A DNA stretch of 27,715 nt from a virus, in IMG/VR virus record IMGVR_UViG_3300021425_000143, positions 1 to 27,715 of that record, one strand, 5' to 3'. Every line of letters begins with the position of its first letter. Within the stretch, counting starts at the first letter, position 1. Below, in pieces: positions 1 to 27,715 of this stretch. Made by a program: the position numbers and the translations under genes. The notes below the pieces were generated by a model that was not told the origin of the DNA, did not search any database, and saw nothing but the letters and a program-made list of their open reading frames with translations.

Positions 1-1864
1 CACCATCTTCGTTTGCTTGGTACTTTTGTTTAAGCGCCTTGATTCCGTGATCTCTATATGAGCGTGTGTAATCAAGACCGTGCTTCTCTGCATCGATGAC
101 CACCATAGAGTGGCGCACCGCACGCGTTACTTCCTCAGTGCTAGCATTCTTAATCTGCATGTCAGTAATGAGGTTCGAGATGTTGCCCATCTCCGTTTGA
201 GTAAGCGTCTTACCCATCTCTTTCATTCCTGGCTGTCTAGCATACTCGCGTTTAGCGTCAAAGTTTTGCAACCGTTCAATGGGCTTGGCCGTTTGGATAT
301 TTTTCTTGCTGTTGGGGATGACAAGAACGGTGTCACCATCAAAGTCTGCACCAGAGAGAATATCTGCGACAGACGGATGGATGCCGACGGCGTCCTTAGC
401 ACCACCAAGCATGGCCTTAGCTTTGGGGTTGCGGTTGTTAACTACTAGTTGCGGGATCTCAAACTTACCGCCATGAGGATATCTTACTAGGGCAACGACT
501 TCGCCGTTCTGATAGTTTGGTGCATAGATTTCTCCAGGGTTGCTGTCTGGTGTGGGCAACAACACTTGCCACCTTTGGCGAGGAAGAGCATGTGCTTTAA
601 GACTCACCGCTTGCGCGTCAAGCGTACGAGCGTAGTCCTCAAGGAGGGCCTTCTTAACAGTCGGATTGGTAAGCTCTAAAATATCTTTTAGCTCATTGTG
701 TCGACTTTCAAAGGCCATGTCTAGTTGTTGCTTAGCTAGCTTCGGTGGTTGTTTGGATAGAACCTGTGAAGCAATCGAGTTGCTCCAACCACCCCAGTCG
801 CCTTCCTCGTTTACGAGGTTTACGGCAGAAGTGACTTCTCTTGTCCCATCAGCGTTGGTTTTAAATATCTGTCTCTTGATCTGAGTACCAAAGGGATTGT
901 CGGCATCATCCTTCAACGGTTTTAAAGTATCAAGCTTGTCTGGCGCTTGCTCTTTGGTCTTGTTTGTGTTGAAGAGAATATCTGTGCCTTCTGGAAGACC
1001 GTCTTTGTAGATAGCCATACCCTTGAGGTAGTGACCAGGACCAACCTGAATTCGAACTTGCGCATAAGACTTTCCGCCCAATGACAGATCGTCAACGCCT
1101 GGTCGAATGTACATAACGCCATCAGCGTCAGCGCCGCCATCTTCTGCGTAATTGACACCAACACGCGATGGGTCAACAGCCTTTGGTGGTAACATCCCTA
1201 AAAATGTTTCACCTAAGTCTTCGCTGGCAACGTTGATCGTACGCACTTGGTCGTTTTTGACTGCTGTAAGTACGTCGCCAAAGGTCGTGTCTGGTTGGGA
1301 CAATACTTTCATCTTAGTGAATTTGTCTCCAGCATTCTTGACCTTTGGGTTGCTTACAACAAAACCCTCATCCTTTAGGATGCTGACTGCAGCACTAAGC
1401 TTTTGATCGCTAACCCCCATGTAGTTAGAAGCACCACGACCAATATCTAGGAAGCCTTTTGAGTAAACTTCCATACGTAGGGTGTCAACGGTGTTCTTCA
1501 AGGTGCTTTGTGTGTACTTGTCGGGATCCTTTAAGTAATTACGAACAGTAGCCTCCGGAACACCCATGCGATTTGCAATGGCATTCGTGGACATACCCTT
1601 CGATTTATACTTGACGGCTTCGCCGACTGTAGCTGCTCTATCTTCTGCGATAGCAACAGTCTTGGTTTCACGGAGTTGTCCGACAGTCATTCCGACGCCT
1701 TGGGCAATATCTTTCTCCGAGAGACCCTGATTCTTCATGTTTTGCACGTAGTCTAAGAAGCTTTTGCTTCGTTGAGGAACGTTACCGCCCGAGCCCCAAG
1801 GGTATCGGCCGGACAACCTCAAGATTCCGTAATGTGATAGGTAGTCGGATTCTTCCATAATCAT
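1..1864 (-). CDS. Two-barrel (DFDGD-type) RNA polymerase-like protein with N-terminal helix-turn-helix segments, 3' part outside window
   Basis: An uninterrupted minus-strand frame runs from a start at 1864 (ATG-ATT-ATG; a second ATG lies at 1858) to the window edge, giving about 621 codons without a stop. AGGAGGG at 1883-1877 is the ribosome site and favours the 1864 start. The first ~110 residues hold two helix-turn-helix-like stretches (LSEKDIAQGVGMTVGQLR and STNAIANRMGVPEATVRNYL). Residues ~430-450 contain LPRQRWQVLLP. Residues ~507-511 are DFDGD inside ILSGADFDGDTVLVIPN, preceded by GIHPSV, much like the HP...NADFDGD context of bacterial beta-prime. Further on, MVVIDAEKHG resembles the VD-x-x-K-x-G segment of single-chain QDE-1/YonO-type polymerases. 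Known of the family: the DxDGD aspartates bind the catalytic magnesium. Inferred: a phage transcriptase for some gene class, or a virion-delivered one. The 3' end is missing, so length and completeness are unknown. Confidence 0.7.
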   Translation of the reverse strand, partial: MIMEESDYLSHYGILRLSGRYPWGSGGNVPQRSKSFLDYVQNMKNQGLSEKDIAQGVGMTVGQLRETKTVAIAEDRAATVGEAVKYKSKGMSTNAIANRMGVPEATVRNYLKDPDKYTQSTLKNTVDTLRMEVYSKGFLDIGRGASNYMGVSDQKLSAAVSILKDEGFVVSNPKVKNAGDKFTKMKVLSQPDTTFGDVLTAVKNDQVRTINVASEDLGETFLGMLPPKAVDPSRVGVNYAEDGGADADGVMYIRPGVDDLSLGGKSYAQVRIQVGPGHYLKGMAIYKDGLPEGTDILFNTNKTKEQAPDKLDTLKPLKDDADNPFGTQIKRQIFKTNADGTREVTSAVNLVNEEGDWGGWSNSIASQVLSKQPPKLAKQQLDMAFESRHNELKDILELTNPTVKKALLEDYARTLDAQAVSLKAHALPRQRWQVLLPTPDSNPGEIYAPNYQNGEVVALVRYPHGGKFEIPQLVVNNRNPKAKAMLGGAKDAVGIHPSVADILSGADFDGDTVLVIPNSKKNIQTAKPIERLQNFDAKREYARQPGMKEMGKTLTQTEMGNISNLITDMQIKNASTEEVTRAVRHSMVVIDAEKHGLDYTRSYRDHGIKALKQKYQANEDG

Positions 1865-1881
1865 GAATATCTTTGTCCCTC

Positions 1882-2370
1882 CTATGTAAACCTAACGCTA
1901 ACTCCTGCTACATCTTTATTTGTTTTAATTGCACGCGATAGTTGTTTTGGGGAAATATCTAGTCGCATGGCACAGCGGTTGATGCTATCAAAGCGTTCAC
2001 CGGTTTGTATAATGCGGACAGGTTTTGCGTTAGAAAGCAGTCTACCTCTTGTGTACGCCAACTTAATATTTTCGCTAGCACTAACGAGCCGCAAGTTCCA
2101 TATAAAGTTGTGTGACTTAACACTGTTAATGTGGTCGACTTGCTTGTCCGAAATATCTTCCTCAAAGAAAGCCTCTGCAACAAGTCGGTGAACTAAGTAG
2201 GATGTTCCTTGACCCCTATTCCAAAGTTGGACTCTCAAATATCCGGTTCCTATAATGCTTGGATTTAGCGTTGCACCAGACTTGCGATTCCTAACTCTAC
2301 CATAGTTTGATACAGCATAATTTGGGTAGTCCCTAACAGGCGCCCAAACCTCCTGCATGTTGTTACTCAT
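1882..2370 (-). CDS. HNH homing endonuclease with NUMOD4 domain
   Basis: The 162-residue protein begins with a NUMOD4-type DNA-binding motif (W-x2-V-x-DYPNYAVSNYGRVRN, residues ~8-29). An HNH nuclease core follows: VHRLVAEAFF at ~60-70, then VDHINSVKSHN and NLRLVSASEN at ~78-103. A C-terminal NUMOD1-like segment (GERFDSINRCAMRLDISPKQLSRAI) probably reads specific DNA. Such free-standing enzymes cut intron- or gene-free alleles and spread themselves. The start overlaps the stop of the upstream exonuclease gene by 4 bases (ATGA), and its own stop abuts the ribosome site of the polymerase-like gene downstream. Its position next to that gene suggests the RNA polymerase gene or the nuclease cluster as the homing target. 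The core histidine and asparagine residues are present, so it looks intact. Confidence 0.88.
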   Translation of the reverse strand: MSNNMQEVWAPVRDYPNYAVSNYGRVRNRKSGATLNPSIIGTGYLRVQLWNRGQGTSYLVHRLVAEAFFEEDISDKQVDHINSVKSHNFIWNLRLVSASENIKLAYTRGRLLSNAKPVRIIQTGERFDSINRCAMRLDISPKQLSRAIKTNKDVAGVSVRFT

Positions 2371-2927
2371 TCGCCTAGCTCGGTCTTAGCACTCTCGATA
2401 AGTTGGTCAAAATAAACAATTTTGTCCATGATTTCTGAGATTGCTTCGGGATAAGGTATGTGTTCTTGAATTTCGTCGCTCTGGTAGATACGCAACGAGA
2501 ACTCAATGTCAAACGGAAGGACTCCGTACTCGAGACAAAAGAGTGCTGCGTAGATTTCCAATTGTGTGAACGATGCTTTTGTGGTGCCAGTCTTTAGGTC
2601 GTGTATATGAAGTACTCCGTTCCTAAAGCTAAGTGCGTCAACGTGTCCAAAACAGTTGTCGCTGTAGTACAAAGGAATCTCACATTTCATCTTGTTGTCA
2701 ATTGCATCGTTGACATATAAGCTTAGTGTTGTCTGATCGTCCGGCAAGCGGACCCCAAGCTTAATGGCTTGTTCACAGAAGTCGTGTAGCTGCGTTCCCA
2801 GGCGTGCTGCGTTGTGTCTAGAATAACCAGACAACAATTTCTCGTCGTCGTAGTTAACCCAGTGGTACTTGGAGGGCGATAAGAATGCGTGCTTACCACC
2901 CAGATTCGAGCGTTCGTTGAAGATCAT
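2367..2927 (-). CDS. PD-(D/E)XK exonuclease, Cas4/RecB-like
   Basis: This 186-residue protein carries the ordered motifs of the PD-(D/E)XK nuclease fold: GTQLHDFCEQA (~44-54), a GHVDAL aspartate (~94), then LHIHDLKTGTTKAS (~107-120), giving the D-x-K pair, and TQLEIYAALFCLEYG (~121-135), matching the Q-x3-Y motif of RecB/Cas4 nucleases. The known role of such proteins in phages is 5' or 3' resection feeding recombination. No four-cysteine iron-sulfur cluster is visible, unlike classical Cas4. The start overlaps the upstream VRR-NUC gene by 35 bases, and no clear ribosome site is seen, so translation is probably coupled. It is followed by an overlapping HNH gene. Confidence 0.8.
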   Translation of the reverse strand: MIFNERSNLGGKHAFLSPSKYHWVNYDDEKLLSGYSRHNAARLGTQLHDFCEQAIKLGVRLPDDQTTLSLYVNDAIDNKMKCEIPLYYSDNCFGHVDALSFRNGVLHIHDLKTGTTKASFTQLEIYAALFCLEYGVLPFDIEFSLRIYQSDEIQEHIPYPEAISEIMDKIVYFDQLIESAKTELGE

Positions 2928-3189
2928 CTAAAACCGTACTTTCAATAGCTGGATAAATATACGAACACCAGGACATGCTGTCCAGAAGGTGTACATAGTA
3001 GTCTTGGTTCGGTTGATGCTTCGCTTGTTGGCTAGTCTTAACTTCAAGCATGGCCCACCGTTCGTTGAATAGAATCAACAAGTCGGGAATACCCTGCAAA
3101 TATCCAGAGTCATTCTTAAGGACCACACAGCCCGGGAACATGAGCTTGAGGCGTTTAATCAATTGTGCTTGATAGGCTGCTTCGCGCAT
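2893..3189 (-). CDS. VRR-NUC domain nuclease
   Basis: The 98-residue product is close to the size of a minimal VRR-NUC domain. It begins with an acidic/glutamine helix (EAAYQAQLIKRLK). KNDSGYLQGIPDLLILF follows, the characteristic G-x-PDL strand, then WAMLEVKTSQQAK, which supplies the E-x-K pair. The family is a branch of the PD-(D/E)XK fold that cuts branched DNA such as Holliday junctions or flaps. The start has a good GAGGAG site. It is the first gene after a hairpin-plus-T-run and leads a nuclease trio (VRR-NUC, Cas4-like, HNH). A role in resolving replication or packaging intermediates is inferred. Confidence 0.82.
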   Translation of the reverse strand: MREAAYQAQLIKRLKLMFPGCVVLKNDSGYLQGIPDLLILFNERWAMLEVKTSQQAKHQPNQDYYVHLLDSMSWCSYIYPAIESTVLDDLQRTLESGW

Positions 3190-3212
3190 GTTTCTCCTCT
3201 CGGAATGATAGT

Positions 3213-3252
3213 CAAAAAATATAAGGGAAGCAGTGCATAAATGCTGCTCCCC
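3213..3252 (-). terminator. Hairpin followed by T-rich tract
   Basis: Read on the minus strand, GGGAGCAG pairs with CTGCTTCCC (one bulged base) around a ten-base loop, followed by TTATATTTTTT. This is the form of an intrinsic terminator for the gene ending at 3297. A TATAAT hexamer lies directly upstream at 3261-3256, so the hairpin could instead be an attenuator at the start of the next transcript. Confidence 0.65.
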
Positions 3253-3255
3253 CCT

Positions 3256-3261
3256 ATTATA
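3256..3261 (-). promoter_or_regulatory. Possible -10 box upstream of the nuclease genes
   Basis: The minus strand reads CTTATAATAG here, a perfect TATAAT hexamer in an AT-rich gap before the VRR-NUC gene. No convincing -35 hexamer is visible at 16-18 bases. A start about 7 bases downstream would place the terminator-like hairpin at the very 5' end of the transcript. Confidence 0.35.
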
Positions 3262-3296
3262 AGCGATGTATACCGTACGATACTATACTATTATTG

Positions 3297-3902
3297 TCAG
3301 ACCCATTGGAATCCAACGTCTACGTACATGCAGGGCTCACCCTCGAGCTCGCACGATTCGTAGACTGCCTTTGCCATGATGCCGTGGTCCTTTGCTGCCT
3401 CGAAGACTGAGTCATACTCAATGTCCGACGGTTCGTCGTCACACAACTGAATGACTGGACCATGGTGGAACCATCGAGGAATATCTTCGAACTGTTCCCG
3501 ATACTTACGACCAAAGCCGCCTGGACGCCAAACAATGTTGTCAGCGTAAAGATCTGTTTGGACGTTGTTCTTGATCAGCGCCGTAGTGAAATATCCAGAA
3601 GGACATTCGACAAAGGCTTGAGCAACCGCGTTGCGCACTGAGATAGTCTTGTAGCCCGAGCCATCCGCCAAGCTAACGTTGGCACGAATATCCCCGTACT
3701 GGTTTGGACTAAGTTTAACTTCGCACTTTCGTACTGCGTCCCAAACAACGCCTTGATCGGAGATCAGATAGTCTTGTCGAATATCTGGGTCCCAGTAGAT
3801 GTTGCACCATTTAGGTTCAACGGGAACAGTTCTCTCTCTAAGAAGCTCTTCTCGTAGAGCCGCATGTCGCTTGTTAATGTCATAAACATTGTTGTAATCC
3901 AT
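3297..3902 (-). CDS. NUMOD4/HNH-like protein with degenerate nuclease core
   Basis: The 201-residue protein starts at an ATG with an AAAAGGAGA site. Its layout mirrors NUMOD4-HNH proteins: PKWCNIYWDPDIRQDYLISDQGVVWD (~30-55, split here as a W/DY/S/G pattern), a strand region about reproducing a template (YGDIRANVSLADG), then AVAQAFV (~87-93) matching the HRLVAEAF helix, and NNVQTDLYADNIVW (~112-125) matching the DH-x-n-N-x-n-DNLRW stretch. The catalytic histidines of the HNH core are not visible: AVAQAF has no preceding HR, and the DH pair is replaced. It may therefore be a non-cutting DNA-binding relative. A C-terminal half (GPVIQLCDDEPSD onward) could be a NUMOD-type module. It is isolated between a terminator and the repeat-rich gap. 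Confidence 0.6.
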   Translation of the reverse strand: MDYNNVYDINKRHAALREELLRERTVPVEPKWCNIYWDPDIRQDYLISDQGVVWDAVRKCEVKLSPNQYGDIRANVSLADGSGYKTISVRNAVAQAFVECPSGYFTTALIKNNVQTDLYADNIVWRPGGFGRKYREQFEDIPRWFHHGPVIQLCDDEPSDIEYDSVFEAAKDHGIMAKAVYESCELEGEPCMYVDVGFQWV

Positions 3903-4308
3903 GTGTCTCCTTTTTGTGCACTTTTTAATTGTCCCATAAAATTGATCTCGATTTTGACTTGATTGGCCATTTGGCCACCTAATTTCAAAAACTTTTTATT
4001 CTCTACAGATTCTGTGTATTCTCTATTATTTGTAGAAAGTTTTTAAAAAAGGGGTCAAAAGTGGCCAAATTGAAGAATTCCTATATGTACCAAGGGAATT
4101 CCGTGGCCACTTTTGTTTCAGAATTGGCCACTTTTACAAGTTTGTATGGGACAATTGGCCTTTTTGGGCACTTTTTGACCCTTTTTACAATTGTCCCATA
4201 ATTATGGGACATTTAGGATTTGGGTGCTTTTTGACCAATTTGGACACTTTTTGGCCACTTTTGGCCACCAAAAACCAATTGTCCCATACAATAACATACT
4301 ATTTTTCG
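3903..4308. repeat. 405-base non-coding block with iteron-like repeats (candidate origin or control region)
   Basis: No supported gene lies here. Several short elements recur. GTCCCATA occurs at 3931, 4193 and 4281, and inverted at 4145 and 4203. Units of the form GGCCACTTTT or GCACTTTTT occur many times (about 3918, 4106, 4127, 4168, 4243, 4254), with an inverted form near 4050. GAATTCC and GGAATTC form arms of an inverted repeat at 4075-4101. The block is AT-rich with G/C-run islands and contains no copy of the AATAT pentamer that is frequent elsewhere. Dense direct and inverted iterons in the largest intergenic gap, beside a helicase gene, suggest a replication origin or a multi-site operator. 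The function is inferred only. Confidence 0.7.
4193..4210. repeat. 18-base perfect palindrome
   Basis: GTCCCATAATTATGGGAC reads identically on both strands and joins two of the five GTCCCATA copies of the block head to head. This is the typical shape of a dimeric protein's binding site, for example an initiator or repressor. Confidence 0.75.
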
Positions 4309-5523
4309 CTAGTCTAACGCTATACCGTGTTGGTTGGCAAAAGCGTTCTCGTTGAAATTCTGTTTCATTCCTAGAATATCTAGGATGCCATTCTCGAGGC
4401 TTGTGTCAGTCTTCAAGACATAGTAGTGCAAATCTGTAAACGGCGAGTCAAGTCTATCGATCCTACCCTGTGCCTGCTCAAAAGTTTTGTACGAGTACGA
4501 CATTGAGTAGAATATCATTGTGTCCGTCTCCTGACAGTTCCAGCCTTCTGCTCCAGCTGTATACTGTACGAGGTACACCCAGGAATCGGCATCAGGGATT
4601 GGTGTCTTGCGAGAACCATTCCATTCGCCTACCTCCACACCTTCGTCACCGTAAAGCTGTCTTAGAATATCTAGCTCGTAGTTGAAGTTGTAATAGATGA
4701 CAATCTTGGGGTGTTCTACCAGTTTTTCGCGAATGAACCCCAATCGGCTAGGGTCCTCCGCCAAGACTCTACGACCCAAACGGAATAGCTCGCCGATGTC
4801 GGCAATTGGTTGGTCCTCAATTGGATTCCAGCGATTCTTCCAAACAGTCTTAAGCAAATCTACGTCATAGTCGACGTCAACAAACTCTACGTGTCGTTTG
4901 GTGTGGCTGAAGTAAGGCATCTCGACTAGCAACATATTACGATGTTTCTCAAGAGTTTGTTCGTCCAAATATCGCATGACCTTGGGATACGGAAGACGTG
5001 GGTAGTACACCACGTGCTCTTGTTTGAACTGTGTCTGGTTCTTGTACAGGTTGTTAGCAACAAAGACGGGAACGTAATCCAACCACACGTCGCCAGGAGT
5101 GGCGCTGAGTAATATCCAGCGGTTCTTCTTAGCTATCTCGTAGAAAGCTTTGACCCACGACCCCGACCCAACAAGACGTTGCTCGTCAAAGATGAAGAAA
5201 GAATTCTGAATATCCATGTACTTAGTGATGTTGTTCCAAGAGTCAACCGTAAGTGTCCCGTGTAACGTGCCGTCACGCTCTGCGCCAATACCTAGCTTTG
5301 CTGCGTCTTGTTGCCAGTCAAGGCTGTCACGCTTTTTAGCTGTAGTGATAACGTATATGTTCTTGGGCGCCTCGCGCTTAACGTAGTACGCAAGCGACGT
5401 AATTGTCTTACCAGTACCAACGCCACCATACAATATCTTACCCTTGCCCAACTTGTCGACGGCTTCCACCTGGTGCGGGTAGAGCATCGGTTTAACAATT
5501 GAGTTGTAGTGTTCTTCTGACAT
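4309..5523 (-). CDS. Superfamily 2 DNA helicase
   Basis: This 404-residue protein starts at an ATG at 5523 with a GCAGGAGG site; an upstream in-frame ATG at 5583 lacks one and would overlap a conserved upstream element. Motifs in order: a Q-motif-like LYPHQVEAV, Walker A GGVGTGKT (~32-39), Ia region VITTAKKR, motif II FFIFDEQR, motif III LLSATP, motif IV region IVIYYNFN, motif V VQYTAGAEGWNC and motif VI QAQGRIDR. This is the SNF2/DEAD-like arrangement of phage remodelling helicases that open or strip DNA with ATP. Motif II is DEQR rather than DEAD/DEAH, but the essential D-E pair is kept. Its stop lies at the edge of the repeat-rich block, so a role in origin opening or recombination is possible but inferred. 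Confidence 0.88.
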   Translation of the reverse strand: MSEEHYNSIVKPMLYPHQVEAVDKLGKGKILYGGVGTGKTITSLAYYVKREAPKNIYVITTAKKRDSLDWQQDAAKLGIGAERDGTLHGTLTVDSWNNITKYMDIQNSFFIFDEQRLVGSGSWVKAFYEIAKKNRWILLSATPGDVWLDYVPVFVANNLYKNQTQFKQEHVVYYPRLPYPKVMRYLDEQTLEKHRNMLLVEMPYFSHTKRHVEFVDVDYDVDLLKTVWKNRWNPIEDQPIADIGELFRLGRRVLAEDPSRLGFIREKLVEHPKIVIYYNFNYELDILRQLYGDEGVEVGEWNGSRKTPIPDADSWVYLVQYTAGAEGWNCQETDTMIFYSMSYSYKTFEQAQGRIDRLDSPFTDLHYYVLKTDTSLENGILDILGMKQNFNENAFANQHGIALD

Positions 5524-5556
5524 TATACCTCCTGCAAAATTTATAAGGGGTGTAGA

Positions 5557-5580
5557 CAGTTTAACGACATGTCCAGGTCG
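5557..5580 (-). promoter_or_regulatory. Upstream element type II, copy 1
   Basis: The minus strand reads CGACCTGGACATGTC then GTTAAACTG. The same pattern recurs at 11784-11807 and 20120-20143, each time 20-45 bases before a start codon. Here it precedes the SF2 helicase. A sigma-70 -35 box is not conserved, so it may be a phage-specific promoter, an operator (GACATGTC is palindromic), or an RNA leader element. Confidence 0.6.
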
Positions 5581-5592
5581 CATTCTTGTTAC

Positions 5593-5826
5593 TTACTCGG
5601 GTCCGCCAGTCCACTCGTCCACCCAGTTGCGCATGTCGGATTTACCCCGCTCGTGGGCCACATAGGCAATAGCGGCGCACACAGAGGCACACAGGAGGCC
5701 TACAGGCCACCCTAGACGCACCACTTTAACCTCCAATCCGTGGCGACTAGGCGCAACATCCGCTGCGTCCAGCCCCCAAGTACCTAGTCCCAGGCTTGTG
5801 TCAATACCAATATCGTCGTTATTCAT
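5593..5826 (-). CDS. Small single-pass membrane protein
   Basis: I do not recognise this 77-residue protein. Residues ~40-60 (GWPVGLLCASVCAAIAYVA) form one hydrophobic segment, preceded by an acidic glycine-rich N-terminus and followed by a charged tail, HERGKSDMRNWVDEW. The start has a GAGGAGG site and overlaps the upstream stop by 4 bases (ATGA), so the two are probably translated together. The downstream side holds the type II element. Cytoplasmic-membrane location is inferred. Confidence 0.7.
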   Translation of the reverse strand: MNNDDIGIDTSLGLGTWGLDAADVAPSRHGLEVKVVRLGWPVGLLCASVCAAIAYVAHERGKSDMRNWVDEWTGGPE

Positions 5827-6116
5827 GATTCCTCCTCAAGTTTGTTTACTGTTTCCATCAAACTTACTTCAATTTCTCGAAAGCGCTTGAACATCTCAAT
5901 GTTGTCCATCACGGCTACGTCGCTTTCCCACATTCGAATAAGGTTTTGAAGCGTGAAGTGAATCGAGCTAATCAAGAGCTTGAAGTCCTCTTCCGTGTCA
6001 ACATCTGTATTCTTCATGATTTCAGCGCAGGCTTCAAGAACCGTCCCGCTCATCTGCCAGTCGGCATAGAGTCGGTCGTGCTGTTCAAATTTCTCGTCAG
6101 TTTCCTCGTCGGTCAC
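5823..6116 (-). CDS. Acidic helical protein of unknown function
   Basis: This 97-residue protein is strongly acidic, with many D/E and few hydrophobic strands. It is predicted mostly helical by its pattern (FKLLISSIHFTLQNLIRMW, then MFKRFREIEVSLMETVNKLEEE), with heptad-like spacing at the C-terminus that could form a coiled coil. It starts at GTG, with AGGAG about nine bases upstream, and follows the repair-type gene within three bases. No family is recognised. Confidence 0.7.
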   Translation of the reverse strand: MTDEETDEKFEQHDRLYADWQMSGTVLEACAEIMKNTDVDTEEDFKLLISSIHFTLQNLIRMWESDVAVMDNIEMFKRFREIEVSLMETVNKLEEES

Positions 6117-6118
6117 GT

Positions 6119-6610
6119 TTAAATACTCCTAGCTGTAGGGTCTGGTGGCCAAACGTATTCCAGAGAATCTGGTACGTCAGGCCAATAATGTTTGTAGTGT
6201 TCGGGGTCCTTGCGGATCAGGTTTGATCGGTGTGAAATATAGACGTCTTCACAGTCAATCCATGGTGGAGGTTGGAGGTTCCACGTCCCAGGTTCAAGGA
6301 TGTTGTCGCATGCCATCGACTCCATCGCTTCGCAGAACCTCCAACTCATCGTGTCTTTATAGCCACGACTTATCCACTCTAGTGAGCACAAATATCCGTA
6401 ACGAGCTAACTCATAAGCGTGCCCACGCCACATGACTGTACACGGATGATTAGACCAACCCTTGTGGTTTTTGTAGTCGCCGTTCTTGTCTATACCGCGC
6501 AAGACGTTTAGAATCTGAAATGTCTCTACACGCTGTTTACCGAGTCTTTGTCGATCAAGCCGTTCGAAACCTAACTCTAGATTGGCACCCTCTGGTAAGA
6601 AGGTCTGCAT
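6119..6610 (-). CDS. MSMEG_6728-like / pyrimidine-dimer-glycosylase-related protein
   Basis: The 163-residue protein opens with MQTFLPEG and continues LDRQRLGKQRVETFQIL, then WSNHPCTVMWRGHAYELARYGY and EWISRGYKD. This order is what I recall of the actinobacterial MSMEG_6728 family, related to the T4 endonuclease V (pyrimidine dimer DNA glycosylase) superfamily. The conserved R/K/Q residues near the N-terminus fall where endonuclease V contacts DNA, and the threonine after MQ could be the counterpart of its catalytic N-terminal threonine. That assignment is inference. A role in repairing UV-damaged phage DNA is plausible. A GGGGG-type site precedes the ATG, and the stop is followed within three bases by the next GTG. 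Confidence 0.65.
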   Translation of the reverse strand: MQTFLPEGANLELGFERLDRQRLGKQRVETFQILNVLRGIDKNGDYKNHKGWSNHPCTVMWRGHAYELARYGYLCSLEWISRGYKDTMSWRFCEAMESMACDNILEPGTWNLQPPPWIDCEDVYISHRSNLIRKDPEHYKHYWPDVPDSLEYVWPPDPTARSI

Positions 6611-6616
6611 AGATAA

Positions 6617-6880
6617 TTACCCCCTACGTTTTCGGATAACGGTAAGGCGCTTGCCTCGTCGGATCTGTGCGTAGTGTGTACCACACAACCCTCGTGCATC
6701 TTTTGGTCGACCGCAGTCCGGATAAGCACATAGCTCTGAATATCCATCTGCGTGTTTGTAGGACCTGATCGACGTAAGCTCTTCACCACGCTGTTTCTGT
6801 TTGTAGTGAGTGCCGCATAATCCCTGAGCTCGCGGTATTCGGTTACACTCAGGAAATATGCAGTCGGTCCAGTCGATCAT
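6617..6880 (-). CDS. Protein with two tandem Cys-His zinc-binding modules
   Basis: This 87-residue basic protein consists of two copies of one module: C-x4-C-x8-C-x2-HY-x-Q-x2-RG. The first is CIFPEC...GLCGTHYKQKQRG at ~7-32, the second CAYPDC...GLCGTHYAQIRRG at ~51-76. The C4/C2H spacing would bind one zinc each, and the RG-rich tail of each module is suitable for DNA contact. Similar modules often accompany HNH nucleases, but no nuclease core is present here. The start overlaps the upstream stop by one base (TAATG). Nucleic-acid binding is inferred. Confidence 0.72.
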   Translation of the reverse strand: MIDWTDCIFPECNRIPRAQGLCGTHYKQKQRGEELTSIRSYKHADGYSELCAYPDCGRPKDARGLCGTHYAQIRRGKRLTVIRKRRG

Positions 6881-20143: not shown

Positions 20144-20151
20144 TGAATAAG

Positions 20152-20910: not shown

Positions 20911-20913
20911 AGA

Positions 20914-21027: not shown

Positions 21028-21053
21028 AATAGGCCTCCTAATTATTGTTGGTG

Positions 21054-21083
21054 TGAAAAAAAATGAAACCCGTGTGGGGCTTC
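21054..21083 (-). terminator. Intrinsic terminator
   Basis: On the minus strand GAAGCCC pairs with GGGTTTC around CACAC, followed by ATTTTTTTT. The hairpin begins within the stop codon of the gene ending at 21082. Confidence 0.78.
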
Positions 21084-21327
21084 AGGACGTAGATTCAGTT
21101 GCTAGCTCGATTGCAGCCTTGGCAGTTGCTTTGTCAAAAAGATACTCCCCCACACGAGTTTCTGCGCTACGCAAGATTCTGCCAATAGCAAAACCTACAA
21201 CATACGTCGCAGACGCAACTACGACTCCCGAAATAATCGTGTATCGATCGGGTTGCTCCTCCAGAAAAGCTTCGATCTGAGAAGCCTTGTCTTCTGACGG
21301 TGTGTAGTTAAAAATGTTTTTAATCAT
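21082..21327 (-). CDS. Small single-pass membrane protein
   Basis: The ATG at 21327 with a TTAGGAGG site gives 81 residues; the frame is open further upstream but runs through the leader without a ribosome site. The middle (IISGVVVASATYVVGFAIG, ~31-49) is a transmembrane segment, followed by a basic RILRSAETR and an acidic-alanine helix. The membrane segment resembles the one in the gene at 10597. The gene has a ~100-base leader with mutually exclusive hairpins and a terminator at its end, so it is a single-gene unit. Confidence 0.7.
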   Translation of the reverse strand: MIKNIFNYTPSEDKASQIEAFLEEQPDRYTIISGVVVASATYVVGFAIGRILRSAETRVGEYLFDKATAKAAIELATESTS

Positions 21328-21363
21328 TGGTCCTCCTAAGGAAAAAATTATTAGGTGTGTTTG

Positions 21364-21389
21364 GTTGGAGTCCCAACGACGAATCGTTG
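21364..21389 (-). promoter_or_regulatory. Two mutually exclusive leader hairpins
   Basis: In the leader of the gene at 21327, CAACGA-TTCG-TCGTTG (a stable UUCG tetraloop) and GTTGG-GACT-CCAAC share GTTG, so only one can form. Closer to the gene, CCTAA and TTAGG could pair and cover part of the ribosome site. The layout suggests an RNA switch, but no effector is apparent. Confidence 0.45.
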
Positions 21390-21426
21390 AGAGCGGGCTG
21401 TTGTTTAAAACATTTAGGTTTCCCTC

Positions 21427-21456
21427 TCCGTTATAAGACGTGTTTCTTTTGCGAAC
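21427..21456 (-). promoter_or_regulatory. Upstream element type I, copy B
   Basis: The minus strand reads TTCGCAA, thirteen bases, then TATAACGGAGAGGG. The middle differs from copies A and C, so conservation is concentrated in the two outer blocks, as in a promoter. It lies about 100 bases before the ATG at 21327. Confidence 0.62.
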
Positions 21457-21514
21457 CCGTTTTGGTTTCACAAATTTTCCCACCGCGAATTTTTTAAGAA
21501 TTGCAATTTTTAAA

Positions 21515-21558
21515 GTAGATGTATGAGCTAGCGTTCTTCTGCTAACCCATACACCTAC
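21515..21558 (-). terminator. Long imperfect hairpin, possible terminator
   Basis: On the minus strand an 18-base arm beginning GTAGGTGTATGG pairs with its partner ending CATACATCTAC, mostly Watson-Crick with a few G-U pairs, around an eight-base AGAAGAAC loop. The flanks are AAAAATTTTT and TTTAAAAATT. It lies 18 bases after the stop at 21576. The T run is short, so it may be a terminator or an RNA-processing site. Confidence 0.6.
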
Positions 21559-21575
21559 CCTAAAAATTTTTGTGG

Positions 21576-21881
21576 TTACTTCAAATCCAATTCTGGTTTC
21601 TTAACGAAGTTGAAACCCTTAGACGTGATTACGTTGGTGTGCTCGTAGCCAACAACGATTAGAATGCCGAGGAGCGAAACGCTTGCAGATAGGATTGCAT
21701 CGGATGAAAGTTTGCGACGCTTTTGACCATTGTCAATTGCATCGAACTTTTCGATGTGTTCCAGAATCTTAGCGAATTCTTCGGAATCGGTTTCGTGTTG
21801 TTCTAATGAGACCAAGCAACGATCGATCTGATCGTCATATCGGGTGTCTTCTTCTTTACGTGAAAACGGATTACTGAACAT
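21576..21881 (-). CDS. Conserved phage single-pass membrane protein
   Basis: The 101-residue protein has a charged N-terminal half with acid-rich helices (DDQIDRCLVSLEQHETDSEE). A transmembrane segment follows at ~67-81 (SVSLLGILIVVGYEH), then NVITSKGFNFVKKP. The GYE-x-x-N/H-VITSKA/G-x-x-FV ending is a pattern I recall from a common phage family of unknown function. GGAGG of the type I element lies 9 bases before the ATG, so the element and the ribosome site overlap. Confidence 0.72.
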   Translation of the reverse strand: MFSNPFSRKEEDTRYDDQIDRCLVSLEQHETDSEEFAKILEHIEKFDAIDNGQKRRKLSSDAILSASVSLLGILIVVGYEHTNVITSKGFNFVKKPELDLK

Positions 21882-21891
21882 TGTAATATAC

Positions 21892-21923
21892 CTCCGTTAT
21901 AACACGTGTATACGTTGCGAAAG
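21892..21923 (-). promoter_or_regulatory. Upstream element type I, copy C
   Basis: The minus strand reads TTCGCAA, thirteen bases, then TATAACGGAGG, almost identical to copy A. TATAAC is so close to the ATG at 21881 that a start 7 bases downstream would give a nearly leaderless transcript. Confidence 0.62.
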
Positions 21924-21930
21924 AACTTTT

Positions 21931-22287
21931 CTAAACGTTTTCTCGACGAACGTCAAACCGAATCGATTGAAGTCCGGCAAGCTCTTCCGGAGTTTTTTCC
22001 AACTCAAGACCGACCGTAGGTACACCGTCGTCGTCAACTTTGACCACCATAGAACCAACGCCCGAAGGGTTGATTGCATTGAATCGGCGTCGGTTTGCTC
22101 GAAGAGCTACACCAAGGAAGAACATGGCCAACACCAGAACGCCAACAACATTGTGGTCTCCAAAGAAGTCCCAGATCAAAGAGGCTAAATATAGAATAGC
22201 CGCAACAGCTGGGAGAAGAGATTCCACCAGCCACTGAACTCGATCGTATGTTGCTTGACTCATTCTTGGCATCTTTACTTCATCCAT
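21931..22287 (-). CDS. Phage holin
   Basis: The 118-residue protein has an AAGGAG site. After MSQATYDRVQWLVE come two close membrane segments: LLPAVAAILYLASLIWDF (~24-41) and VVGVLVLAMFFLGVALRA (~46-64). A basic turn, NRRRFN, follows, and a polar C-terminal domain ending FDVRRENV. The YDR-x-n-LPA...VVG...FLGV layout resembles holins of actinobacterial and firmicute siphoviruses. They form holes in the cytoplasmic membrane to release the lysin. No lysin gene lies in the window. The gene follows the tail genes at 12 bases. Confidence 0.75.
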   Translation of the reverse strand: MDEVKMPRMSQATYDRVQWLVESLLPAVAAILYLASLIWDFFGDHNVVGVLVLAMFFLGVALRANRRRFNAINPSGVGSMVVKVDDDGVPTVGLELEKTPEELAGLQSIRFDVRRENV

Positions 22288-22299
22288 GTTAATACTCCT

Positions 22300-23412
22300 T
22301 CAGATTGAGGATAGTGTAGGGAACCCACTGTATCCATTGTTATCAAATATAGTAGCGTACTCAACCACACGCATCTTTTTACTTATGCCATAGTTCGCGT
22401 GTACGTTAACCAAGTCACCTATACTGTAGTCCAATTCATAGCGATACATAGAGCTTTCTGAAATATCAACTTCAACTAACTCAGTTGTGTTGTTACCAAA
22501 AACCTCTTCGTGTCCACGCATAATCATTTGGTCTATTATGTCGGTAAGCGCATCGCCCGTTGGTGCCTCGCTTAACTGTTCGTCCAGGTATACCGCATCA
22601 ACAATTGAGTAAGATTTATCTAGGTCGTTAACCACGCCATGATCGACTAAAACAGAGCAAAACTTGCTTTTGACAAAAACAGAACTTGTATTGCTCTTTC
22701 TGCTCCACAAGTAATTTGCTTCTTCGATGTCTCCCTGATAATACGAGAACCCTACTCGTGTCGAAACGTCTTTACCCTTATGAATGAACAACGTCGGAAA
22801 AGAAGGGTTTTGTTCCCATAGTGAGGTAAATTGGTGAGGCCTTACAGACCTTAGCCCCAGGTCGTCTTGCGCTAATAGCTCTGCAACCGGCGTTGACAAA
22901 AAGGTGCGTTCAATAACCTTTGGGCTAGAATACACAGTTCCATCGTTGTGTAAGTTGACCACGCGTAAATTTTCCACAACATCACTGGCGCTAGTGTTTA
23001 CAAGTTCGTTATCTAGTAATTCTTTAACTAGTTCAGAACCGTAGTTAACTCCAGTTTGGTTGACCACATAGTCGCTTAGAAGACCCGACGTGGGGCTGCT
23101 ACTTGCTCCCGCAACTCGAGAACTCGTGATTGAGTCAAGCGATCTTCCAGTTATGACAACTTTAGCATCTGTGTCAGCACTTTCGATAACTTCGTGGTTC
23201 TCAACAATCATTAGTTCTAATCGTCCCTCGTGCCCAATTACAGAACCTAGTGGTAGTTGGTCAAGAATGCCAGTGTATAGTTTCCCTTCAATTTTAAATG
23301 TCCCAAAATCTCGATACTTCTCAACCCATGTACTTCGGTCAAGTTGGTCAACTGGGACACCGCCCGTAAAGTCTAGAGGCGAATCACCTTTAGAGAATCT
23401 AAATATAGCCAT
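22300..23412 (-). CDS. Gp37-like siphovirus tail protein
   Basis: The 370-residue protein fits the ReqiPepy6 Gp37-like family. The signs are LDRSTWVEKYRDFGTFKIEG near residue 25-44, GHEGRLELMIVENHEV at ~60-75, VVITGRSLDS at ~84-93, and a C-terminal region with YSIGDLVNVHANYGISKKMRVVEY. These proteins form the tail tip or baseplate hub, near the distal tail protein. TGATG overlap with the upstream gene and a GGGGA site set the start. A lytic domain is not visible. Confidence 0.78.
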   Translation of the reverse strand: MAIFRFSKGDSPLDFTGGVPVDQLDRSTWVEKYRDFGTFKIEGKLYTGILDQLPLGSVIGHEGRLELMIVENHEVIESADTDAKVVITGRSLDSITSSRVAGASSSPTSGLLSDYVVNQTGVNYGSELVKELLDNELVNTSASDVVENLRVVNLHNDGTVYSSPKVIERTFLSTPVAELLAQDDLGLRSVRPHQFTSLWEQNPSFPTLFIHKGKDVSTRVGFSYYQGDIEEANYLWSRKSNTSSVFVKSKFCSVLVDHGVVNDLDKSYSIVDAVYLDEQLSEAPTGDALTDIIDQMIMRGHEEVFGNNTTELVEVDISESSMYRYELDYSIGDLVNVHANYGISKKMRVVEYATIFDNNGYSGFPTLSSI

Positions 23413-24293
23413 CAGATCCCCCAGTAAGTAGCGTGGTGCTTAAAGGTCAACAGTGTCCACGCATTGTATGTAGAACCGTCTGTAAACGCAAGTTCTAATG
23501 GGTTTGGTCCCGGATAGATTGTCGGCCATGTGGAGTCAAGCGAGATAGCATTCATCAAATCAATTCGCTCGGCCCCGCGAGTAACAAATATAGCTCGTTT
23601 TCGCGTTCTTGTGTCAACCGTGAGTACATCATCAGCTTCAAAAGCGTGGTTGATTTCAAAACGCCATTCGTGAACATCACCGCTTTCTTGGTTGTCCTGA
23701 ATATAGAACTTGTTCATACCAGTTTGGTCAACCTTGGCAGTAATAAGTAAACCGTGTGGCGCCGTAGACTCTGAGTCAGTAACTTTCCCCACAAAAGGAG
23801 TTGAGAAACTTTCGTTTGTAAAGTCTTCGGGATAGACGTCCTGTGCTTCCGGAGCCACAAGCATGGCTTCAGGGCACCTAATTGTAATTTGTAGTTCTGG
23901 TGTGCTAGAAAACAACGGGACTTCCACCTTGGTAATTACTCCTGTAATTGTTGCAACGTAGACCCCTTCATCCTTAAACCAGAGTTTAACTGCACCCTCT
24001 CTACCTTTTGAAATCCCGCGATAAATATCGTCGCGCAATGTAGAGTAATCCTCCCTTAGTCCCCAGTTTGGATTCAGGACAACCCTAAGAACAACTTCGC
24101 GATCAGTAATCGCTTGCGTTACAAAGGGTTGTCCTGAATATAGCCCAAAACCAGTAGACCGAGAGACAATGTCGGTTGCATCCATACCAATCATGGCTCG
24201 GATGTAAAACCGATCATTGTCTTTCGGAGTACCAAGTGAGAAGCACAAAATCTCGCTGCCGCCAGCGGTCATGGATACTTCTGAAATTTTCAT
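23412..24293 (-). CDS. Distal tail (Dit-like) protein
   Basis: The 293-residue protein is strand-rich. It opens with a beta domain including DNDRFYIRAMIGMDATDI, then REVVLRVVLNPNWG, DYSTLRDDIYRGISKGREG, VKLWFKDEGVYVATITGVITK and a second half with PELQITIRCPEAM. This order matches phage distal tail proteins in the position between the tape measure and the Gp37-like gene. The Dit hexamer joins the tube to the tail tip. ATGA overlaps the tape measure stop. Confidence 0.72.
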   Translation of the reverse strand: MKISEVSMTAGGSEILCFSLGTPKDNDRFYIRAMIGMDATDIVSRSTGFGLYSGQPFVTQAITDREVVLRVVLNPNWGLREDYSTLRDDIYRGISKGREGAVKLWFKDEGVYVATITGVITKVEVPLFSSTPELQITIRCPEAMLVAPEAQDVYPEDFTNESFSTPFVGKVTDSESTAPHGLLITAKVDQTGMNKFYIQDNQESGDVHEWRFEINHAFEADDVLTVDTRTRKRAIFVTRGAERIDLMNAISLDSTWPTIYPGPNPLELAFTDGSTYNAWTLLTFKHHATYWGI

Positions 24294-27200
24294 CGTACGT
24301 CCAATTCCTCCTTGGCAATCGTGATTTGGTTTCTCGTTTGTCTGTAGATTTCAGACGCTGAAAGCTCCTTAGGCGAATAGATGTTCTGTTCGAACACCAC
24401 GTCTCCGCCCGATTCACCTGAACTACTAATAGGAGCCGGTTGGTTGCGGGCCCGAGCAATGCCCTTTGCCGTAACTTTCTGGTCTCCTATAAGTCCATTT
24501 AGGCCGGAAGCATCCTTCTTAAATTGGTCCATGTCTAGGATCGGAGTAATCTTAGGACTGTAGGTTAGGTTTTCACCCTCGTCGGCTATAATATCGCCGA
24601 CCTTACCCATAGTGGTCTTAAGTTTGCGCAGATCTGGTGTCATGTTAGCCAGTGCAGTGTTGGCTATACCTATACTGGATTTTTTCACCATACTCGAACC
24701 ATCGTCGATGCCGACCGCAAGACCTTCGGCGAGATATACGCCAAGTTTCTTAGTCTCTCGCGACGGCGAGAATATTGAAGCAGCCCATTTAATCGGTCCC
24801 AGAACCCAGTCATTAACCCAGCCTGTGAGTTTGCCCCAAAGCCAGCTGCTCATGCTGACGACACCGTTCCACAAACCAATTATTAGGTTTTTGCCAACGT
24901 GAACTAACGTTGTGTATCCATTACCAATCCAACCCAAAATCTTACCAAGAAGGCCAGAGAACCAAGGTATAAGTCTTTCGTTAACAAAACTAATTGCTCC
25001 GTTGTACAACCCGACAATTAGGTTCCAACCCTTAGTAGATAGACTCTCCGCTGTATCGCCGACCCAACCCAACACATCACCAATAAGTCCTGTGAAGAAG
25101 TTTGATACGGTCTTAACGCCTTCTTCTATGCCGCTAAACATACCGTCGATAAGGTCTTTACCCTTGTTGTAGAGCGACGTAAGCACGTCACCAATCCATC
25201 CAAGTACGCTGGACACGAAGCCCGTAAAGAACTCTAGAATTGGTTTGATGCCTTCTGTAACGCCCTCAAATATAGCATCCAAAACGTCCAGACCAGCGTC
25301 AACTAGATCGCTACGATTCTCTCGGATGCTATCTGCTAATCCTTCAAGGAATGATATGAGGGTGTTAAAGCCTGCGTCAACAACCTTGAGTGCGTTCTCA
25401 CCAATACCCTCAATGAAGGAGATGATCAGGTTTGCACCTGCCTCAATAATACGGCCAAGGTTGTCCGAGATGCCGTCAATGAATGCAACAATCAAGTCGA
25501 CAACCGCAGTGACAAACTCAGGGATCTTTTTAGCAATGCCTTCGATAAAGGCTATAACCAGGCCTGCACCAAGGGTGACAATCTCGGGTAGCCGCTCCGT
25601 CATAGTTTCCATGAATGACGTAATAAGCGTAAACGCTGCATCAATCAACTGCGGAACAAGAGTCAGAGCGATGGCAATAACCTCTTCAACAAAGGTCGTA
25701 AGTATGGCCCCAAGAGTAGGAATATACTCAATGATAAGTTGACCGAGACCTGCCATGAACTCAGAGAGGAACTCAAAGAATTCGGGTAGCAACTCGGTAC
25801 CCTTAGACAGAAGGACCCTAAAGCTGTCAACCAACGCTTCGACAAAGTCATCAAACAGACCAAATAGAACCTGCATGATTAGGCCGATTGTCTCTCCGGC
25901 AGTACCAAAGAGACGGACAAATGTCTGTAGTCCACTAGCAATGGCTTTGAAACCAATACCAATACCAGCCATACCAATGCCAATTGCGGCCATAGCAACA
26001 CCAAGAAGAACCATAGCCGGAAGGACCGGCGAAAGCAGGTTAGCAGCAACAGCCAAGATGACAATTGCAGCAGCTAGTCCAATAAAGGCCTTGATCATGT
26101 CAAACAGACCAATTGACGCCATCTTTGCTACGGCTCTTGCCAGAACAAATATAGCTGCCGAAGCAACACCCAGCGCAAATGCCCCTCCAATACTACCCTG
26201 CATGATTTTCATAGATGCAGCCAATATAAGAAGAACAGCCGCTAGTCCGCCTAGGCCTTTAACTAGCTCTGTAATATTAAGCGCACTAAGGGTTACAACA
26301 GCGTTAGCCATCGAACCTATAGCCAGAGCAAGCGCAAGCAGACCAGCAGCCTGCAATGCCATGTTCTTAGGCATGAGTCTGAGCGTAACAATCAAACCTG
26401 CTAGCAGGGCCACAATACCTGTTAGACCCTTACCCAATTCCTCCCAACTCAAAGTTGCTAGAATCTTCATGGCAATCGACAGAATCAACAACGATCCCGC
26501 CATTACACCAATAGCTACAGCCGACTTAAGAACTTCTTTTTCTTTCGGCATGCTGTTTAGCGCAAGCACAAATGCTGTTAGCGCAACCATTACTGACCCA
26601 AGCCCCTTGGCAAGTTCTTCCCAAGACATTGATGCCATGATCTTCATAGCTATAGATAGCACAAGCATTGCACCAGCCAGAAGCCCAATTGCTGCTGCAG
26701 ACTTGATGATCTTTGCATCTTTAGGCATCAACCTAAGAGCGGCAATCATTAATCCAAGTGCAACGCCAACAGCACCTAGTCCCTTAGCCAGTTCCTCAAG
26801 CGACATGCTTGCCATGATCTTGACCGCAACGGACAGAACTAATATGGCAGAAGCAAGTAGAATCAGGGTTGTGGCAAGAGCTGCAAGCTTAACCGTACCG
26901 GCGCCAAGACTGACTTTCGACATGACGACCATTACTGCCACAAGTTGTCCAAAGCCAACTGCCATAGCAGCCAATGCTTTAGTTAGTGAGGCAGAGTCAA
27001 TTGTTGACAGAACAAACATTGAAGCGGCTAGCAGAGCAACTGCAGCGCCAATCTTCATAAGCGCAGTGGCTTTTAGATCGGTTTGCATTGCTTCTAGAAC
27101 ACCAGTTAGTTCACCAATGCTTTCGGTAAGGCCACCAAAGATGCCATCGCTTGATACAAACCTAACGGCAGCGGCAGCTATAGCTGCAAATATACCTGTG

Positions 27201-27715
27201 TTGAGTACGTCAAATGCCGAATCGTAGTCCGCGTCAGCAAACGATGACGTCAATGCTTCAAATATACTACTAACAAAGTCTGTAATCTGCTTGACAATTG
27301 CACCACCCGTTTCGAAAAGCGAGCTAAGGTTGAATTCGGGAAGAAGGTCTGATAGGAACGAGAACCGGCGGTTTAATGCACCACCCATTGCTCCAGCAGC
27401 ATCTGTACCTAACTTAAAGAAGTCGAGCACTTTCTGACCAAATATAACAAACTTATCGAACATCTCTTTGGCCGTGTCCCGAACACCCTCGAGCTTCTTA
27501 CGAAGCGATTCGATTTTGTCCTTGATTGGGTCAATTTTGTCTCGAAGCCCGTCAAAGAAAGTGGCAATCCCGCCTTCATCAACCAAAGCTTCTTTAAGAG
27601 ATGTAACTTTTAATGCTAGGTCGCTAGCCTTATCCAATGCCGACTTAGAAGACGATCCGGAAAAAACTTTAAAGAAGTCAAATGCAAACTTAACGGCTTC
27701 GCTAACAATCGTCGA
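24290..27715 (-). CDS. Tape measure protein, 5' end outside window
   Basis: At least 1141 residues are in the window, and the frame is open beyond the right edge, so the TTG at 27637 is not the start. The N-terminal visible part is a helical coiled-coil region (DKIDPIKDKIESLRKKLEG). Residues ~240-500 hold four or more repeats of ~65 residues with a hydrophobic LSIAMKIMASMSWEELAKGLG unit, and ~700-800 a set of FIEGI/LIISFI repeats. The C-terminal region has the SPSRETKKLGVYLAEGL motif common to tape measures, then a helical tail. Long helical repeats and membrane-like spans are typical; the protein sets tail length and enters the host. The next two genes are its partners. Confidence 0.93.
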   Translation of the reverse strand, partial: STIVSEAVKFAFDFFKVFSGSSSKSALDKASDLALKVTSLKEALVDEGGIATFFDGLRDKIDPIKDKIESLRKKLEGVRDTAKEMFDKFVIFGQKVLDFFKLGTDAAGAMGGALNRRFSFLSDLLPEFNLSSLFETGGAIVKQITDFVSSIFEALTSSFADADYDSAFDVLNTGIFAAIAAAAVRFVSSDGIFGGLTESIGELTGVLEAMQTDLKATALMKIGAAVALLAASMFVLSTIDSASLTKALAAMAVGFGQLVAVMVVMSKVSLGAGTVKLAALATTLILLASAILVLSVAVKIMASMSLEELAKGLGAVGVALGLMIAALRLMPKDAKIIKSAAAIGLLAGAMLVLSIAMKIMASMSWEELAKGLGSVMVALTAFVLALNSMPKEKEVLKSAVAIGVMAGSLLILSIAMKILATLSWEELGKGLTGIVALLAGLIVTLRLMPKNMALQAAGLLALALAIGSMANAVVTLSALNITELVKGLGGLAAVLLILAASMKIMQGSIGGAFALGVASAAIFVLARAVAKMASIGLFDMIKAFIGLAAAIVILAVAANLLSPVLPAMVLLGVAMAAIGIGMAGIGIGFKAIASGLQTFVRLFGTAGETIGLIMQVLFGLFDDFVEALVDSFRVLLSKGTELLPEFFEFLSEFMAGLGQLIIEYIPTLGAILTTFVEEVIAIALTLVPQLIDAAFTLITSFMETMTERLPEIVTLGAGLVIAFIEGIAKKIPEFVTAVVDLIVAFIDGISDNLGRIIEAGANLIISFIEGIGENALKVVDAGFNTLISFLEGLADSIRENRSDLVDAGLDVLDAIFEGVTEGIKPILEFFTGFVSSVLGWIGDVLTSLYNKGKDLIDGMFSGIEEGVKTVSNFFTGLIGDVLGWVGDTAESLSTKGWNLIVGLYNGAISFVNERLIPWFSGLLGKILGWIGNGYTTLVHVGKNLIIGLWNGVVSMSSWLWGKLTGWVNDWVLGPIKWAASIFSPSRETKKLGVYLAEGLAVGIDDGSSMVKKSSIGIANTALANMTPDLRKLKTTMGKVGDIIADEGENLTYSPKITPILDMDQFKKDASGLNGLIGDQKVTAKGIARARNQPAPISSSGESGGDVVFEQNIYSPKELSASEIYRQTRNQITIAKEELDVR

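What the first reader, a model, noticed from the sequence alone, without database searches (positions are those of the whole stretch)
359..27444. Heavily over-represented, strand-polar AATAT pentamer along the whole window
About 110 AATAT lie on the plus strand but only about 11 ATATT, when about 27 of each are expected by chance. Examples start at 359, 864, 1442, 2957, 4967, 6391, 7875, 9120, 10703, 12874, 14221, 16052, 18943, 20825, 22345, 24136, 25268 and 27440. Both enrichment of one orientation and loss of the other are seen. Codon use alone should not do this. Possible roles: primase start sites for the phage's own primase, an orientation signal for packaging or recombination (Chi-like), an RNA motif (AUAUU in the transcript), or a modification or restriction-related site.
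Basis: seen in the sequence. Interest (0 to 1): 0.9.

Follow-up and report, generated by a model that had tools for sequence, protein, structure and literature searches.

The report
One-way five-letter signal carpeting phage genomes
A family of bacterial viruses that make their own unusual RNA polymerase has sprinkled the five-letter word ATATT, always pointing the way its genes are read and almost never closer than about 60 letters apart, through genes that could easily avoid it, which points to an undescribed start or guide signal for one of the virus's own DNA- or RNA-handling machines.

Summary
The + strand holds 111 AATAT and 10 ATATT. All main genes lie on the minus strand, so the signal is ATATT in the sense strand. 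With proteins and codon usage held fixed, 104 are seen against 30.2±4.8 expected, in all three codon phases. The motif is [CGT]ATATT[CT], with nothing else conserved within ±45 nt.

It is a family trait. Complete relatives (Gordonia, Rhodococcus, Streptomyces, Microbacterium phages) show counts such as 136/1, 176/6, 102/1 and 61/1. Unrelated phiC31, T7 and SPBc2 show none. Three rules emerge. (1) About half of the positions where the protein allows ATATT carry it in dense regions, but 0 of 184 within 30 nt of another site do. (2) The reverse orientation is purged in the high-GC phages. (3) It fills the early/middle half and, in prophage relatives, stops at the late operon, after same-direction arrays beside the RNA-polymerase gene.

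The window encodes a single-chain two-barrel RNA polymerase with an HTH region. Best guess: ATATT is its minimal start signal (0.42). Primase sites or an mRNA motif remain possible. Against it: no gene-start preference, and RNAP-bearing relatives without the motif.

The parts
359..27445 (-). 111 sense ATATT sites (AATAT on +), first bases at 359, 680, 864, 977, 1442, 1706, 1866, 1954, 2065, 2152, 2238, 2956 ... 26841, 27189, 27261, 27441; mean spacing 246 nt, smallest 50
297..26278 (+). 10 reverse-orientation sites (ATATT on +) at 297, 2066, 4934, 7168, 7484, 10234, 11018, 11030, 24772, 26274; five of them are half of a palindromic AATATT
2..1864 (-). N-terminal 621 aa of a single-chain two-barrel RNA polymerase (DFDGD at residues 507-511, HTH matches around residues 40-130); cut by the window end; proposed reader of the motif
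   Evidence: phrog_4291 E 1.7e-253, Pfam RdRP E 5.4e-5, just below its cut-off, Foldseek QDE-1 E 1e-11 and P74-26 gp62 / P23-45 gp64 E 3-6e-8
12854..16651 (-). fused primase/helicase-DNA polymerase, 1265 aa; 18 of its 33 protein-permissive positions carry ATATT; candidate reader in the primase rival
   Evidence: phrog_4210 E 0, DNA primase and DNA polymerase profiles
2367..2927 (-). exonuclease
   Evidence: phrog_3953 E 1.7e-72
4309..5583 (-). DNA helicase
   Evidence: phrog_62 E 9.8e-56, Helicase_C
12137..12625 (-). single-strand annealing / ssDNA-binding protein
   Evidence: phrog_4787, Phage_ssDNA_bind E 8e-62
24290..27715 (-). tape measure protein gene, upstream end of the window; also carries the motif
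   Evidence: phrog_4372 E 1.2e-180

Best explanation
Shown: [CGT]ATATT[CT] is a selected, orientation-specific and spacing-regulated nucleotide signal of this phage family, independent of codon phase, dense in the early/middle genes and (in prophage-type relatives) stopping at the late operon, where arrays of it lie beside the RNA-polymerase gene. Inferred: it is the minimal start (promoter) sequence of the phage's own single-chain, HTH-bearing, two-barrel RNA polymerase. The enzyme would start at any ATATT read in the gene direction, so the phage carpets its early/middle genes with co-directional starts about every 200 bp. It spaces them by more than one complex's footprint (about 60-80 bp), removes reverse copies because they would drive antisense transcription, and in prophage-type relatives places arrays just ahead of the late operon. 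The confidence given is for the promoter step; that the signal is real and selected I hold at above 0.95.
For: Nucleotide-level selection: z=15.3 in the window, all phases; 12 genomes pooled, [CGT]ATATT[CT] 965 against 145 expected with codon usage taken outside the motif, reverse 46 against 152, palindrome AATATT near neutral 74 against 85, as if gain and cost cancel. Footprint-like spacing: 0 of 184 permissive positions used within 30 nt of another site, 3% at 30-45, 8% at 45-60, 45-59% at 80-300 nt; flat at about 25% in motif-less relatives. Class boundary in 61 prophage-type loci: about 3/kb upstream, 3-6/kb in the interval 0.3-1.3 kb after the RNAP stop, about 0.5/kb in structural genes; same-direction arrays in that interval. 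The candidate reader is in the window and has HTH matches and a polymerase fold. A precedent for so short a start signal exists: phiKZ non-virion RNAP needs only TATG overlapping the start (PMC7598289). YonO, a distant relative, transcribes the SPbeta late operon from a start next to its own gene, and its promoter sequence was left undetermined (PMC5467207).
Against: Sites are not enriched just upstream of gene starts beyond other AT-rich pentamers. RNAP-bearing relatives without the bias exist: Cheesy (RNAP 51% identical to the window's), P118, MT835495, G014, G019, and no replacement motif was found in the three searched. No gene tracks the trait perfectly. SPbeta shows no ATATT bias or array. 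The reverse word is not clearly depleted in the Clostridia loci. Over 100 starts inside genes would be without precedent. No transcript data.
Confidence: 0.42

Rival explanations
1. Lagging-strand primer start sites read by the primase part of the fused primase/helicase-DNA polymerase during one-way replication.
For: The fused enzyme is in all 17 motif-bearing genomes tested and has no match in MT835495, which lacks the bias. Primase sites need not respect gene starts, in agreement. Spacing near 200 nt could set fragment length. One constant polarity over 77 kb in ReqiPepy6 fits one-way replication.
Against: Structural genes must also be replicated but carry no excess. Purging of reverse sites is not an obvious need. 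Cheesy, G014 and G019 have the enzyme and no motif.
Confidence: 0.2
2. An RNA-level signal: AUAUU in early/middle transcripts, bound or processed by a phage factor, for example to protect or mark phage mRNA.
For: Strictly sense-oriented, restricted to one gene class, independent of codon phase, spacing like that of a bound protein.
Against: Does not predict removal of the complement AATAT, which is 1 against about 27 expected in Gordonia phage Perkunas. Needs an unidentified factor.
Confidence: 0.2
3. A polar guide for a DNA-tracking machine other than RNA polymerase (Chi-like recombination signal, KOPS-like translocation or packaging signal) pointing towards the RNAP/cos end.
For: In ReqiPepy6 and Gordonia phages density is highest 5-30 kb upstream of the RNAP/cos end and decays with distance. 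Reverse copies are nearly absent in high-GC phages.
Against: Streptomyces phages CricKo and HotFries do not follow that gradient. Such signals have no known 60-80 bp exclusion rule. The sharp end at the late operon in prophages is unexplained.
Confidence: 0.1
4. A by-product of codon or dipeptide preference or of strand composition.
For: All genes are on one strand, so any codon effect would look polar.
Against: Protein- and codon-preserving shuffle z=15.3 with all three phases enriched; motif-free codon usage makes the excess larger; spacing rule; unrelated phages show none.
Confidence: 0.01
5. Escape from a Type III restriction enzyme that needs two opposed sites, so that one orientation is lost (as recalled for T7 and EcoP15I; own knowledge).
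For: Explains loss of one orientation.
Against: Does not explain four- to sevenfold enrichment of the other orientation, the spacing rule, or the same word in phages of hosts from several genera and two phyla.
Confidence: 0.02

Closest known systems
YonO of Bacillus prophage SPbeta (PMC5467207)
   Same: Single-chain two-barrel phage RNA polymerase; late operon start next to its own gene; a 1.7-kb interval without annotated genes between yonN and yonK.
   Different: No ATATT polarity and no ATATT array in SPbeta; promoter sequence reported as unknown.
phiKZ non-virion RNA polymerase late promoter TATG (PMC7598289)
   Same: A four-base sequence overlapping the start is the only conserved element.
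   Different: Multisubunit enzyme; mapped late promoters lie in front of genes; a carpet inside genes is not described there.
P23-45 / P74-26 RNA polymerases (PMC10770324)
   Same: Two-barrel phage polymerases found by structure search with the window protein; motif-defined promoters for each polymerase.
   Different: A limited number of mapped starts (23 transcription start sites) with longer AT-rich or GC-rich motifs.
Chi (RecBCD/AddAB) and KOPS/SRS (FtsK/SpoIIIE) polar oligomers (own knowledge)
   Same: Short, orientation-dependent, over-represented words whose polarity follows a DNA-tracking machine.
   Different: Here there is a 60-80 bp exclusion rule, use of about half of the protein-permissive positions in dense regions, and a stop at the late operon.

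Membership tests
Promoter of a phage single-chain (YonO/QDE-1-like) RNA polymerase | Genome encodes such a polymerase | tested here: met
Promoter of a phage single-chain (YonO/QDE-1-like) RNA polymerase | Motif oriented with the genes and avoided in reverse | tested here: met
   the reverse is not clearly depleted in the Clostridia loci
Promoter of a phage single-chain (YonO/QDE-1-like) RNA polymerase | Motif placed preferentially upstream of gene or operon starts | tested here: inconclusive
   No preference at single gene starts beyond control pentamers; arrays ahead of the late operon in prophage-type relatives
Promoter of a phage single-chain (YonO/QDE-1-like) RNA polymerase | Present wherever the polymerase is present | tested here: not met
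   Cheesy, P118, MT835495, G014 and G019 carry the polymerase but no ATATT bias; specificity may differ there but no other motif was found in the three searched
Promoter of a phage single-chain (YonO/QDE-1-like) RNA polymerase | Transcripts start at the motif | not testable with these tools
   Needs RNA data
Chi-like recombination signal | Over-represented and orientation-biased | tested here: met
Chi-like recombination signal | Arrests or redirects a helicase-nuclease | not testable with these tools
Primase recognition site of a one-way replicon | Present along the whole replicon on one strand | tested here: not met
   Structural half at background in prophage-type loci and low in Gordonia and Rhodococcus phages

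The most novel reading that the evidence does not exclude
A phage RNA polymerase whose whole promoter is five bases, used not in front of genes but as a genome-wide one-way carpet of starts written into the coding sequence by synonymous choice, spaced by the enzyme's footprint and, in prophage-type relatives, ending in start arrays ahead of the late genes.
Probability: 0.35. Interest if true: 0.92.

Novelty: new variant of a known kind. Interest (0 to 1): 0.8.

Why it matters
The promoter used by YonO-type single-chain RNA polymerases was not known in the paper that described the enzyme. This family offers more than 200 phage genomes in which a candidate signal can be read off by statistics and tested on phages already isolated on laboratory actinobacteria. 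Whatever reads it, a five-base word that shapes about half of the protein-permissive positions, with a footprint-like exclusion, shows a strong non-coding constraint written across phage coding sequence. It would also explain part of the codon choice of these phages.

Tried and rejected
Codon/dipeptide artefact: rejected. Classical promoters at gene starts: not supported. A host -10 element: not supported, since ATAAT is not enriched likewise and positions within ±45 nt carry no second box. Strand-specific nicking: would predict removal of reverse copies only near sense copies, but Perkunas keeps 1 in 59.6 kb. Type III restriction escape: does not explain enrichment. One gene that tracks the trait: none. 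Clade-specific trait on the RNAP tree: scattered, 10 changes against 13.3 in shuffles. Alternative motif in motif-less relatives: none for Cheesy, P118, MT835495; a CATAT[TC] variant in Curtobacterium phage Eevee. A site-free zone in the 3' RNAP gene looked meaningful but is largely a shortage of permissive positions in the conserved core plus the regional decline. A periodicity in gaps could not be separated from detrending and shared ancestry. Gene-direction flip test: the family is almost wholly one-directional, so no test was possible. Enterococcus PolB hits as RNAP-less controls: too distant to be useful. ATATT array in the SPbeta yonN-yonK gap: absent. Rfam on the window and three array loci: nothing.

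Full report
What was checked. The window (27,715 bp, a viral contig) holds 111 AATAT and 10 ATATT on the + strand. Every main ORF is on the minus strand, so the signal is ATATT in the sense strand. Under a shuffle that keeps each protein and the codon usage, 104 coding-sense ATATT compare with 30.2±4.8, all three codon phases are enriched and the reverse is low (9 against 20.1). ATATT stands alone among 1024 pentamers; the nearest runners-up mostly overlap it. Context shows only two extra preferences, not-A before and C/T after. Avoidance of A before would follow if AATATT, a palindrome carrying both orientations, is unwelcome.

What the window is. It is part of a siphophage with a tape measure gene, a fused primase/helicase-DNA polymerase, a helicase, an annealing protein, an exonuclease and, at 2-1864, a polymerase of phrog_4291. 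AlphaFold (pLDDT 80, pTM 0.59) and Foldseek place this polymerase with QDE-1 and with the RNA polymerases of Thermus phages P74-26 and P23-45. The three aspartates of its DFDGD motif are invariant in 34 homologues and its N-terminal part holds helix-turn-helix matches. In ReqiPepy6 the homologue is annotated as similar to a structural protein of Lactococcus phage 1706, so it may be a virion polymerase; I did not test this.

It is a family trait. 250 phage records carry the polymerase. Whole-genome ATATT/AATAT counts in the gene direction include Gordonia Perkunas 136/1 and Vardy 148/9, Rhodococcus ReqiPepy6 176/6, Streptomyces DrGrey 102/1 and pSt2402 108/2, Microbacterium Damascus 61/1, and Faecalibacterium FP_oengus 106/47. 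Several uncultivated contigs agree, for example 44/0 and 36/0. The GC content of most of these is 50-61%. phiC31, T7 and SPBc2 show nothing. Relatives without the bias exist: Arthrobacter Cheesy and Lactococcus P118 (both read over their first 50 kb), MT835495, G014, G019. The trait is spread over the polymerase tree rather than confined to one clade. That fits an old trait lost several times, but it also means polymerase and motif are not strictly tied.

Selection works on the nucleotides. With codon usage taken from outside the motif, twelve genomes give 965 [CGT]ATATT[CT] against 145 expected and 46 [AG]AATAT[ACG] against 152, while AATATT is near neutral at 74 against 85. In the DNA-polymerase gene of the window 18 of 33 positions where the protein allows ATATT carry it. 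Between phages at about 50% amino-acid identity, sites coincide more than stratified chance (203 against 127).

Spacing rule. Over fourteen genomes, 6 gaps below 30 nt are seen where about 123 are expected from local density. Normalised for protein: 0 of 184 permissive positions within 30 nt of another site are used, then 3% (30-45 nt), 8% (45-60), 23% (60-80), and 45-59% from 80 to 300 nt. Motif-less relatives are flat at about 25%. A second copy nearby is therefore counter-selected, not merely unneeded. This is the behaviour of something with a footprint of some 60-80 bp.

Where it is. Sites show no preference for gene starts once other AT-rich pentamers are used as control. By region the picture is sharp. 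In 61 prophage-type loci from bacterial contigs (mostly Clostridia) density is about 3/kb up to the polymerase gene, 3-6/kb in the interval 0.3-1.3 kb after its stop, then about 0.5/kb in the structural genes; the used fraction of permissive positions falls from 40-47% to 19-26%. In several of these loci that interval holds arrays in one direction, each with its own 5' extension: GGGTC-ATATTT in L202, CTGC-ATATTTG in L254 (36 sites in 1.5 kb), TTAAAG-ATATTTC in L217. In Gordonia and Rhodococcus phages density is highest some 5-30 kb upstream of the polymerase end and decays to nearly nothing over the head-gene arm. CricKo and HotFries deviate. A dip in the 3' part of the polymerase gene is largely due to few permissive positions there. 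The window itself runs from the tape measure gene to the polymerase and is rich throughout (30-47% used); the array interval would lie outside it.

Mechanism. The signal is short, stands alone, works in one orientation, is harmful in the other (at least in the high-GC group), needs a footprint of space, and belongs mainly to the part of the genome outside the head genes. A start sequence for a directional phage enzyme fits best. I favour the phage's own RNA polymerase because antisense starts explain the purge, because the arrays sit between the polymerase gene and the late operon, and because a related phage polymerase is known to start at four bases (PMC7598289). YonO's promoter was left open by its discoverers (PMC5467207). 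The weak points are real: no gene-start placement, polymerase-bearing phages without the motif, and an unprecedented density. A primase reading explains the indifference to genes but not the empty late half. An mRNA reading explains the class limit but not the loss of AATAT.

Limits. Gene calls in most relatives are ORF-based; annotated genes were used for ReqiPepy6 and CricKo. Expected counts depend on codon-usage pools. Relatives share ancestry, so pooled counts are not independent. In the Clostridia loci the reverse word is not clearly depleted. The host of the window's phage is unknown. My searches of the paper library found no transcript data for a family member and no report of this motif; the library lacks most subscription papers.

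Noticed in passing
window 2-1864 (minus), residues 9-26: The RNA polymerase begins with a conserved LxHYGxxRxSGRYPWGSG tag in most homologues; ReqiPepy6's copy is annotated as similar to a structural protein of phage 1706, so it may be packaged in the virion.
   Followed up: partly
L254 12700-14080; L202 12800-13570; L217 12810-13740: Noncoding arrays of ATATT in one direction after the RNAP gene, each with a phage-specific 5' extension; no Rfam match.
   Followed up: partly
L095 (ReqiPepy6) 39938, 40474, 41906, 48746 and L098 (CricKo) 24944: A recurrent intergenic element with ATATT 10 or more nt upstream of a TATAAT-like box followed by gagacccctac, ahead of small genes.
   Followed up: no
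L127-L129 (Curtobacterium phage Eevee): A shifted motif CATAT[TC]: CATATC 36 against 6.2 expected, CATATT 25 against 1.3; a chance to co-map specificity with protein changes.
   Followed up: no
window, whole: CGCG is under-represented (29 against 64) and GAATTC over-represented (17 against 7.2) by Markov expectation.
   Followed up: no
window 18075-18923 and 20152-20910 (minus): Two DUF6353 proteins of unknown function; relatives of both are present in all 17 motif-bearing genomes compared and without a match in P118 and MT835495.
   Followed up: no
L274 3153-4833: SPbeta has a 1.7-kb gap without annotated genes between yonN (beside yonO) and yonK, comparable in place to the array interval of this family, but without an ATATT array.
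   Followed up: yes
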